Shown: positions 49,574 through 52,507 of the stretch, piece after piece
Position numbering within the stretch: position 1 is the stretch's first letter
Layout of the letters: every line of letters begins with the position of its first letter
NCBI GenBank assembly: GCA_026985095.1
Contig: JALSQW010000008.1
Span: 124,001 to 188,000 of the forward strand
Source: Acidimicrobiia bacterium
GTDB taxonomy: Bacteria; Actinomycetota; Acidimicrobiia; Spongiisociales; UBA5794
Direction of reading: 5' to 3'
DNA: 64,000 bases
Translations under genes and position numbers: made by a program
Notes under the pieces: generated by a model
Database searches by the model: none
What the model was told of the DNA's origin: nothing
The model's input: only the letters and a program-made list of their open reading frames with translations

Positions 49574-51001
49574 ATGACCCCAGACACCGAACGCGTCCAC
49601 AAGACCTGGCTGCACTCGGACCGGTACATCCCCCGGCGTTTCGTTCGGCCCGCCATGCAGTTCATGGAGACGGAGTCCGCCGGCGGCATCGTCCTCATCG
49701 TGGCCGCCGCCGTCGCGATCATCTGGGCCAACTCGCCGCTGTGGGAGTCCTATTTCCGGTTCTGGGAGACCCACCTGACGATCGAGGTCGGCTCCTGGTT
49801 CCACTTCAACGAGTCACTCAAGGATCTCGTCAACGACGGCTTGATGGCGATCTTCTTCTTCGTCGTCGGTCTCGAGATCAAGCGGGAGCTGGTGGTCGGG
49901 GAGCTCAACGAACCGAAGAAGGCAGCCCTGCCGGCGATGGCGGCGATCGGCGGCATGATCGTCCCTGCGCTGATCTACACCGGGTTCATCCTCTCGTCGG
50001 GGGGCGGCGAGGCCATCAAGGGATGGGGCATCCCGATGGCGACCGACATCGCCTTCTCCGTCGGCATCCTGGCGCTCCTGGGATCCCGCGTCTCGATCGG
50101 CGCGAAGCTGTTCCTCTTGGCGTTGGCGATCGTCGACGACCTCGGCGCCATCATCGTGATCGCCGTGTTCTACACCGAGTCGCTCCAGTTCGCATGGCTG
50201 CTGGCGGCCATCGCGGGCCTGGCATTGGTGGCCGTGGCCGGGAAGGTCGGGATCAGGACGTACCTGTTCTACGGGACGATCGCCCTGTTCGTATGGTTCG
50301 CCGTGCTCGAATCGGGCGTGCATGCCACCATCGCGGGCGTCGCTCTAGGGCTGCTCACACCCGTCCATGCGCTCTATTCGGACGAGGAGTTCCGACGCAA
50401 GGCACGCTGGATCCTGGAACGGTTCGACATGGACGCCGCGGCGCCGAACTCGAAGGCTCGCCTCGACGAAGACGCCCTTCAGCTCGCCGCCGTCGCCACC
50501 GAATCGGTGCCGCCGCTCAACCGCCTCGAACATCGTCTCCACGGCTACTCGTCGTTCCTCATCATCCCCATCTTCGCCCTCGCCAATGCCGGCGTCCGGT
50601 TCATCGGCCTCGACATGGGCACCGTGGTGACCAGCCCGGTGATGCTCGGCGTCGCCTTCGGCTTGATGATCGGAAAGCCCGTCGGGATCGTCGGAGCCAC
50701 CTGGCTGGCCGTGAAGATGAAGCTCGGTGAGCTGCCCCGGCGCACGGACTTCAAGAAGGTCGTCGGGCTCGGGTTCATCGCCGGCATCGGATTCACGGTG
50801 TCGCTGTTCGTCACCGAACTGGCGTTCCGCGGTTCGGATCTGGCGGAGCTCTTCGGCGACGAGGCGAAGATCGGGATCTTCCTCGGGTCGTTCGTCGCCG
50901 GTTTGATCGGGTTCCTGATCCTCCGCTCCAACAAGACGCCGCAGGAGGAACTCGAGGACGCCAGGGAGGCCGTCGGCGTGGCCGCCGTCGCCGCCGACTG
51001 A
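49574..51001 (+). CDS. nhaA: Na+/H+ antiporter NhaA
   Basis: This 475-residue protein has the NhaA helices, including the ion-binding pair in A-I-V-D-D-L-G-A and the A-T-D-I-A-F motif. G-F-T-V-S-L-F occurs late in the protein. It exchanges Na+ for protons to control pH and salt. A TAACCT element is 9 nt upstream of the ATG. The C-terminal extension is acidic and poorly conserved. The putative selenoprotein gene starts 25 nt downstream, perhaps in the same transcript. Confidence 0.95.
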   Translation: MTPDTERVHKTWLHSDRYIPRRFVRPAMQFMETESAGGIVLIVAAAVAIIWANSPLWESYFRFWETHLTIEVGSWFHFNESLKDLVNDGLMAIFFFVVGLEIKRELVVGELNEPKKAALPAMAAIGGMIVPALIYTGFILSSGGGEAIKGWGIPMATDIAFSVGILALLGSRVSIGAKLFLLALAIVDDLGAIIVIAVFYTESLQFAWLLAAIAGLALVAVAGKVGIRTYLFYGTIALFVWFAVLESGVHATIAGVALGLLTPVHALYSDEEFRRKARWILERFDMDAAAPNSKARLDEDALQLAAVATESVPPLNRLEHRLHGYSSFLIIPIFALANAGVRFIGLDMGTVVTSPVMLGVAFGLMIGKPVGIVGATWLAVKMKLGELPRRTDFKKVVGLGFIAGIGFTVSLFVTELAFRGSDLAELFGDEAKIGIFLGSFVAGLIGFLILRSNKTPQEELEDAREAVGVAAVAAD

Positions 51002-51026: not shown

Positions 51027-51572
51027 ATGAACATCGCCGACATCACCGTCGTGGACGTCGCGGGCGTCGCGCGCAGGCTGGGATCGGTCCTCGACCGTCC
51101 CACCGTCGTGCTCCTCCCCCGGTACTTCGGCTGAGCACCCTGCCTCGAGATGCTGGCGCAGTTCGCGTCGGTCCACGAGGAGATCCTCCGAACCGGAGGA
51201 GCGGTCATCGCGATCGCTCCGGCGGCGGCGTACCAGGCGCGCCATCTGGCGGCGACCTCGGTACCGTTCGCGCTGTTCATCGACGAAGGCTCCGCGGTGA
51301 CCCGGCGTCTGGCGTTCCGCCGCCGCTCCTTACCGGCGTTCGTGTTCGACCTGCGGGCATGGTCGCGATGGCTCGTCGCCCTCGCTCGTCACCGCCGGCA
51401 GGGCCGGATCACCGGGCACCATTCGTCGGTCCCGGGGGTCGCGGTCGTCACCGCCGAAGGGCACGTCGCGTGGTTGCACGAAGGCCGCGGCATCGGCGAC
51501 TACCCGTCGCCGGCCGAGATCCGCGCCGAACTCGATCGCCTCATCGCCTCCGAGGAGAGGAACCGGCGATAG
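51027..51572 (+). CDS. Putative selenoprotein: peroxiredoxin-like (AhpC-TSA_2/SelL-related), UxxC
   Basis: From ATG 51027 the frame runs 35 codons to an in-frame TGA (51132-51134) and then continues open to TAG 51570-51572, 181 residues if the TGA is read as Sec. The sequence around it is L-P-R-Y-F-G-U36-A-P-C39-L-E-M-L-A-Q-F. This aligns with the R-x-F-G-C-x-x-C redox motif of peroxiredoxin-like 2 proteins, with Sec replacing the first Cys. Homology continues on both sides of the TGA (strand before, helix after). A SECIS-like hairpin lies 25 nt downstream. A pseudogene is the main alternative, but the exact placement at the catalytic Cys argues against it. CAGACT sits 7 nt before the ATG. 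Function: probable thiol/peroxide redox enzyme. Confidence 0.85.
51152..51172 (+). other. Candidate bacterial SECIS element
   Basis: An 8-bp hairpin (51152-51159 with 51165-51172; five Watson-Crick and three G-U pairs) has a 5-nt loop AGUUC with G at the second position. Its loop begins 25 nt after the UGA. This fits the known bacterial SECIS rules: a small loop, G among the first two loop bases, and 16-37 nt from UGA. It lies inside the coding region, as bacterial SECIS elements do. Confidence 0.65.
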
Positions 51573-51691: not shown

Positions 51692-52507
51692 ATGACCCAA
51701 CCGAACCCCCTGCGCGTCGCGTGGTCGGTCCTGCGGGCCCGACGCGTCCGTCCGCCCGCTCCTCGAGCTTCCGAGCCGGTAGACGAGCCGGACCGTCACG
51801 AGGACCTGGCGACGATCCTCGAGACGCTGGCCGCCGCCGGAACGCCGGCCCTCGTCGACCTGCGTTCCCGCCTCGATCGGTACCGCGATCGTCTCGCCGG
51901 CGTCGACCCCGACGATCTGGACCGACCGTCGGCGCTCGCGTACTGGATCGACCTGTACAACGCCGGGGCCCTCCGGCTCGCAGGGGATGCGCTCGCCGCA
52001 GGTCGGACGACCGTGCTTCGGGTCCCCGGTGCGTTCGACGACCCGTGGGTCGAGGTGGCCGGCGAGGCCCTGTCCCTCAACGACGTCGAACACGGCAAGA
52101 TCCGCCGGTTCGGCGATCCCCGCATCCACGGCGCCCTCGTGTGTGGGTCGGTGTCGTGCCCCACCCTGCGCTACGAGCCCTTCGTCGGGGACCGGATCGA
52201 TCGGCAGCTCGACGACCAGATGCGATCGTTCCTGGCGGCGGGAGGGGCGAGCTACGGACCGGCGGAGGGAACCCTGACCTTGTCGAGGGTGTTCCTCTGG
52301 TACGGGGGCGACTTCACCCGGCCATCTCGGATGCCCACGTGGCTCCCCGCTCGGGCCTCGAACCTGGCCGCAGCCGTCTCGCGATGGCTCGCCGACGACG
52401 TCGCCCGCGCGATCGAGGCGTCGGATCCGAAGGTTCGTTTCGCCTCCTACGACTGGGGGCTGGCCTGTTCATTGGCGGCTCGCCCGCCGTCGCCGCCGAG
52501 CTCCTGA
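51692..52507 (+). CDS. DUF547-domain protein
   Basis: This 271-residue protein matches DUF547: R-L-D-R-Y-R-D-R, A-L-A-Y-W-I-D-L-Y-N-A, L-S-L-N-D-V-E-H-G, H-G-A-L-V-C-G-S-V-S-C-P and a later W-Y-G-G-D-F. The Y-W-I-N/D-x-Y-N-A and C-x-S-x-S-C-P motifs are well kept. Function in bacteria is unknown. The start is uncertain: an in-frame GTG at 51623 would add 23 residues. It lies 119 nt downstream of the selenoprotein gene and may share its transcript. Its 3' end overlaps the convergent membrane-protein gene by 61 nt. Confidence 0.82.
   Translation: MTQPNPLRVAWSVLRARRVRPPAPRASEPVDEPDRHEDLATILETLAAAGTPALVDLRSRLDRYRDRLAGVDPDDLDRPSALAYWIDLYNAGALRLAGDALAAGRTTVLRVPGAFDDPWVEVAGEALSLNDVEHGKIRRFGDPRIHGALVCGSVSCPTLRYEPFVGDRIDRQLDDQMRSFLAAGGASYGPAEGTLTLSRVFLWYGGDFTRPSRMPTWLPARASNLAAAVSRWLADDVARAIEASDPKVRFASYDWGLACSLAARPPSPPSS

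What the first reader, a model, noticed from the sequence alone, without database searches (positions are those of the whole stretch)
51027..51572. Likely selenoprotein: peroxiredoxin-like protein with Sec at its first redox position
An in-frame TGA at 51132-51134 sits exactly where peroxiredoxin-like 2/AhpC-TSA_2 proteins have the first Cys of F-G-C-x-x-C. Upstream (P-T-V-V-L-L-P-R-Y-F-G) and downstream (A-P-C-L-E-M-L-A-Q-F) sequence are both in frame and family-like, giving F-G-U-x-x-C. Ordinary gene callers would split it or begin at ATG 51150 and lose the active site. Sec use in this family within a GC-rich actinobacterium is uncommon.
Basis: partly seen in the sequence, partly recalled or inferred. 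Interest (0 to 1): 0.92.

Follow-up and report, generated by a model that had tools for sequence, protein, structure and literature searches.

The report
Selenocysteine peroxiredoxin-like gene, actinobacterial
The in-frame stop codon in this gene almost certainly encodes the rare amino acid selenocysteine at the active site of a peroxiredoxin-like redox enzyme; the case is solid, but the protein belongs to an already known kind of bacterial selenoprotein that turns out to be common in this bacterial class.

Summary
Window 51027-51572 (+) is one gene: a 181-residue peroxiredoxin-like protein with in-frame TGA at 51132-51134, giving R-Y-F-G-U-A-P-C.

Its own genome has SelA, SelB, a tRNA-Sec with UCA anticodon, and a SelD that is itself Sec-containing. 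The same-genus relative (89% identical) keeps the TGA. TGA falls in the same column in 61 of 70 distinct homologues from the class; the other nine have Cys. Genomes with the Sec form nearly always have selA (48/52; Cys form 4/9, p=0.002).

A bacterial SECIS hairpin (51152-51172, loop AGUUC, 25 nt after UGA, -11.1 kcal/mol) fits the published model. Across 84 Sec and 15 Cys sequences, strong hairpins go with Sec (p=2e-7) and show compensatory changes.

The predicted fold (pLDDT 95.6) best matches human PRXL2B; U36/C39 align with its C44/C47.

NCBIfam's SelL-related model is the nearest family (70.7 bits, cut-off 120), and UxxC Prx-like selenoproteins are long known. Verdict: a genuine new member of a known kind. 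Biochemical function is inferred, not shown.

The parts
51027..51572 (+). Sec-containing peroxiredoxin-like protein, 181 aa, start ATG 51027, stop TAG 51570-51572
   Evidence: Translation with TGA=U; homologues over the full length; AhpC-TSA 26.3 bits against cut-off 26 and AhpC-TSA_2 23.6 against 27; NF040769 70.7 against 120
51132..51134 (+). Sec codon TGA (U36), first residue of the UxxC motif
   Evidence: TGA in 61 and Cys codon in 9 of 70 distinct homologues at this column; C/U36 column invariant in a 49-row alignment
51141..51143 (+). Cys39 codon TGC, expected resolving residue of UxxC
   Evidence: Invariant column in A1; aligns with C47 of human PRXL2B
51152..51172 (+). bSECIS-like hairpin GCUGGCGC-AGUUC-GCGUCGGU, loop 25 nt after UGA
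   Evidence: RNA fold; -11.1 kcal/mol, synonymous-shuffle p=0.04; strong hairpins go with Sec homologues; compensatory changes in the wider set
51159..51161 (+). Gln codon CAG, 9 residues after Sec, forming the start of the apical loop (A,G) and its closing C
   Evidence: Gln in 79/84 Sec forms, always CAG; 4/15 Cys forms
49574..51001 (+). NhaA Na+/H+ antiporter, 25 nt upstream, probably co-transcribed
   Evidence: PF06965, 482.8 bits; co-transcription is inferred from spacing
51692..52507 (+). DUF547 protein, downstream, same strand
   Evidence: PF04784, 69.2 bits

Best explanation
The gene encodes a selenoprotein. UGA at codon 36 is decoded as Sec by SelB carrying Sec-tRNA-Sec, directed by a hairpin 25 nt downstream inside the coding sequence. 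The product is a thioredoxin-fold, peroxiredoxin-like (PRXL2-type) oxidoreductase. By inference, the U36 selenolate at the N-terminus of helix 37-55 attacks a peroxide, endoperoxide or disulfide; C39 then resolves the oxidised selenium to a Se-S bond, which a thioredoxin- or mycothiol-type donor reduces. Shown here: the read-through gene, Sec machinery, hairpin, homologue pattern and predicted fold. Inferred: substrate, electron donor and physiological role.
For: Own genome: SelA 334.7 bits, adjacent SelB 294.3 bits, tRNA-Sec 73.6 bits with anticodon tca, SelD 396 bits with its own in-frame TGA at SHGAGUACK. Homologues: TGA/Cys exchange at one column; the label needs 6 changes on the tree. selA co-occurrence 48/52 against 4/9. 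bSECIS: best hairpin mean -9.4 kcal/mol in 84 Sec forms and -2.9 in 15 Cys forms, p=2e-7; both-side changes in 6 of 8 pairs, reached by 5 of 1000 shuffles. Model constraints taken from PMC13188914. Fold: pLDDT 95.6, top hit human PGFS/PRXL2B 9usa, E 2e-10; U36/C39 align with C44/C47.
Against: No protein-level evidence. The window hairpin alone is not exceptional by whole-fold z-score (-0.2 to -1.7), and the pair count on the 11 closest sequences is uninformative. Four genomes with the Sec form lack a selA hit (G304, G188, G343, G232), attributable to incomplete assemblies but not proven. Substrate and donor are untested.
Confidence: 0.95

Rival explanations
1. Pseudogene or sequencing error: an ancestral Cys codon became a premature stop, and only a truncated product from ATG 51150 is made.
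For: Standard ORF calling gives only the 140-aa ORF from 51150.
Against: Same TGA in the same-genus genome and in 61 of 70 homologues; low pN/pS on both sides; the truncated form lacks the active-site motif; Sec machinery present.
Confidence: 0.02
2. TGA is read as another amino acid (reassigned code or a near-cognate tRNA) rather than as Sec.
For: Only that the frame is open under any TGA sense reading.
Against: TGA is an ordinary stop next door (NhaA and the DUF547 gene both end in TGA); a tRNA with anticodon tca is present and is tRNA-Sec; strong hairpins go with TGA-bearing homologues.
Confidence: 0.01
3. Sec is right, but the protein is mainly a disulfide or regulatory oxidoreductase (ResA/Trx-like UxxC chemistry), not a peroxidase. 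This is a rival on function only, and is compatible with the best explanation on identity.
For: UxxC spacing is Trx-like; ResA structures match the profile and the fold; the Sargasso Sea paper calls the Prx-like UxxC motif thioredoxin-like (PMC1088965).
Against: Closest sequence and fold match is PRXL2B/PGFS, an enzyme named for reducing prostaglandin-type endoperoxides; the N-terminus (MNIADITV...) shows no obvious export signal by eye.
Confidence: 0.4

Closest known systems
SelL-related redox protein (NCBIfam NF040769)
   Same: Only NCBIfam hit of the window protein; full-length alignment 3-168
   Different: 70.7 bits, under the curated cut-off of 120; one Sec (UxxC), not the UxxU form known for SelL
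Prx-like thiol:disulfide oxidoreductase, UxxC/UxxU (PF00578), including the Prx-like UxxC selenoproteins of the Sargasso Sea and GOS surveys
   Same: Same Pfam family (marginal score) and the same Sec motif (PMC13188914, PMC1088965, PMC2398784)
   Different: Described there without reference to this actinobacterial clade; the listed sequences themselves could not be compared here
PRXL2B / prostamide-PGF synthase (9us9, 9usa) and eukaryotic selenoprotein SelU
   Same: Top profile and fold hit; U36/C39 align with C44/C47. From general knowledge SelU is a Sec form of the PRXL2 family
   Different: About 20% identity; Cys in the human protein; eukaryotic SECIS lies in the 3' UTR
Peroxiredoxin-like family protein cd02970 (AhpC-TSA_2), UxxS
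   Same: PF13911 relationship; Sec at the first position
   Different: Ser, not Cys, at the second position

Membership tests
Bacterial selenoprotein | In-frame UGA aligned with Sec or Cys of homologues | tested here: met
   61 TGA, 9 Cys at one column
Bacterial selenoprotein | SelA, SelB, SelD, tRNA-Sec in the genome | tested here: met
Bacterial selenoprotein | bSECIS: loop 3-9 nt, stem 4-16 bp, G in first two loop bases, 16-37 nt from UGA, energy <= -7.5 | tested here: met
   loop AGUUC, 8 bp, 25 nt, -11.1 kcal/mol
Bacterial selenoprotein | Selenium in the protein | not testable with these tools
   needs 75Se labelling or mass spectrometry
NF040769 SelL-related redox protein | Score over curated cut-off of 120 bits | tested here: not met
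   70.7 bits; some clade B and C relatives pass (123.1, 120.6)
PF00578 AhpC-TSA | Score over gathering cut-off | tested here: met
   26.3 against 26, marginal
PF13911 AhpC-TSA_2 | Score over gathering cut-off | tested here: not met
   23.6 against 27 for the window protein; all 49 aligned members match at E<=0.001, best 9e-24
PRXL2-type protein | Thioredoxin fold with CxxC/UxxC at the N-terminus of the first long helix, PRXL2 as nearest structure | tested here: met
SelL (UxxU diselenide) | Second Sec three residues after the first | tested here: not met
   Cys at position 39

The most novel reading that the evidence does not exclude
A distinct actinobacterial Sec subfamily (Y-F/Y-G-U-x-x-C, the window protein well below the NCBIfam cut-off) in which the recoding hairpin dictates part of the protein: Gln at Sec+9 is kept because its CAG codon builds the SECIS loop, and is usually lost when Sec becomes Cys. 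In the window's own clade the gene often sits directly behind a secondary transporter gene (NhaA or Atg22-like MFS), which may point to a shared stress role.
Probability: 0.5. Interest if true: 0.5.

Novelty: new member of a known kind. Interest (0 to 1): 0.42.

Why it matters
It is a strongly supported selenoprotein that ordinary annotation truncates at its active site. It also shows that a class of GC-rich actinobacteria uses Sec widely in PRXL2-type enzymes. The Sec/Cys pairs within one family, with and without the hairpin, make it possible to test directly what Sec buys the enzyme and how far an RNA element constrains a protein sequence.

Tried and rejected
Plasmid collection: no match. 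Rfam at gathering threshold on 44-60 kb: nothing, so no curated RNA family covers the hairpin. Whole-fold z-scores of the window hairpin: weak. Pair counts on the 11 closest sequences: uninformative because most pairs never vary; the wider set was needed. Direct literature on Sec in this class: no held paper has selenoprotein, Acidimicrobiia and selenocysteine together, and three incidental papers came from the looser search. A second homologue in the window was sought and not found.

Full report
What is there. The frame 51027-51572 on the + strand has one in-frame TGA at 51132-51134 and ends with TAG. Read with TGA as Sec it gives a 181-residue protein with RYFGUAPC. Ordinary calling finds only 51150-51572 (140 aa), which lacks the active site. 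Coding-type third-position GC is high on both sides (0.94, 0.86), but 26 TGA codons in the window pass a similar filter, so this alone is weak.

Homologues. A class-wide protein search found matches in 83 of 395 genomes, most with one internal TGA. Among well-aligned homologues the TGA falls in the column of U36; of 70 distinct sequences 61 have TGA and 9 a Cys codon. R32, G35, C/U36, C39, D86 and D158 are invariant in 49 aligned members. The same-genus gene is 89% identical and keeps the TGA; pN and pS are 0.039 and 0.107 upstream, 0.060 and 0.191 downstream of it, so both parts look to be under purifying selection, although the upstream part is short. On a tree of 99 proteins the Sec/Cys label needs six changes and Cys forms nest inside Sec clades (for example L087/L094, L108, L118). 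The root is unknown, but Sec-to-Cys replacement is the simplest reading of these nested cases. The class assignment (Acidimicrobiia) rests on the record title of the same-genus genome.

Machinery. The genome in which the window lies holds SelA, adjacent SelB, tRNA-Sec with anticodon tca and SelD. SelD itself has an in-frame TGA at its active site, SHGAGUACKLGP, an independent and classical selenoprotein. In the class, selA is over cut-off in 262 of 395 genomes. Genomes with the Sec form have selA in 48 of 52 cases, those with the Cys form in 4 of 9 (Fisher p=0.002). The four exceptions are draft assemblies, three of them under 85% complete.

SECIS. [quoted passage not shown] The window has an 8-bp hairpin at 51152-51172 with loop AGUUC, 25 nt from UGA, -11.1 kcal/mol; synonymous shuffles average -3.3 (p=0.04). 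Across 84 Sec and 15 Cys sequences the best such hairpin averages -9.4 and -2.9 kcal/mol; 64 of 84 and 1 of 15 pass the energy limit (p=2e-7). In 42 Sec sequences chosen by loop sequence, 6 of 8 pairs show changes on both sides; 5 of 1000 shuffles reach that. Shuffles and the rank test do not correct for relatedness. In another group the hairpin has loop GGUCA at 21 nt. Gln nine residues after Sec is present in 79 of 84 Sec forms and always CAG, while other Gln codons in these proteins are CAG in 402 of 490; only 4 of 15 Cys forms have it. I infer that the RNA, not the protein, holds this residue.

Fold and mechanism. AlphaFold gives pLDDT 95.6. The best solved matches by profile and by fold are human prostamide/prostaglandin F synthase (PRXL2B), 9us9 and 9usa; U36 and C39 align with C44 and C47, the two residues mutated in 9usa. 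U36 lies at the start of helix 37-55. From established thioredoxin-fold chemistry I infer nucleophilic attack by the selenolate, resolution by C39 and reduction by a thioredoxin- or mycothiol-type donor. Peroxidase against disulfide reductase remains open.

Context. NhaA (49574-51001) ends 25 nt upstream; a DUF547 gene (51692-52507) follows. In 8 of 11 loci of the window's clade a secondary transporter gene ends 2-41 nt upstream on the same strand: NhaA in three, an MFS protein in five (Pfam confirmed for the window and for four of the others; the rest by clustering).

Known or new. UxxC Prx-like selenoproteins have been known since at least the Sargasso Sea survey (PMC1088965) and are in current tables (PMC13188914). 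NCBIfam's SelL-related model is the only NCBIfam hit, below its cut-off. The gene is therefore a new member of a known kind.

Noticed in passing
51159-51161 and homologues: Gln at Sec+9 is nearly universal in Sec forms (always CAG) and mostly absent in Cys forms, suggesting that the SECIS loop constrains the protein sequence.
   Followed up: yes
49574-51001; L054, L055, L056, L058, L061, L062, L063: In 8 of 11 loci of the window's clade a secondary transporter gene (NhaA or Atg22-like MFS) ends 2-41 nt before the Sec gene on the same strand.
   Followed up: partly
L056, L058, L062: Two different Sec-containing Prx-like genes (RYFG/RYYG type and RHFG type) lie within about 4 kb of each other on one contig.
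   Followed up: partly
L052:1501-2424 (G000 C32:14580-15503): SelD of this genome is itself a selenoprotein (SHGAGUACK), so ordinary calling would truncate it too.
   Followed up: yes
L091, L097, L119: A small group has a different hairpin, GCGAGCAGNCUGCUCGC, only 17 nt from UGA, again with CAG at the loop.
   Followed up: no
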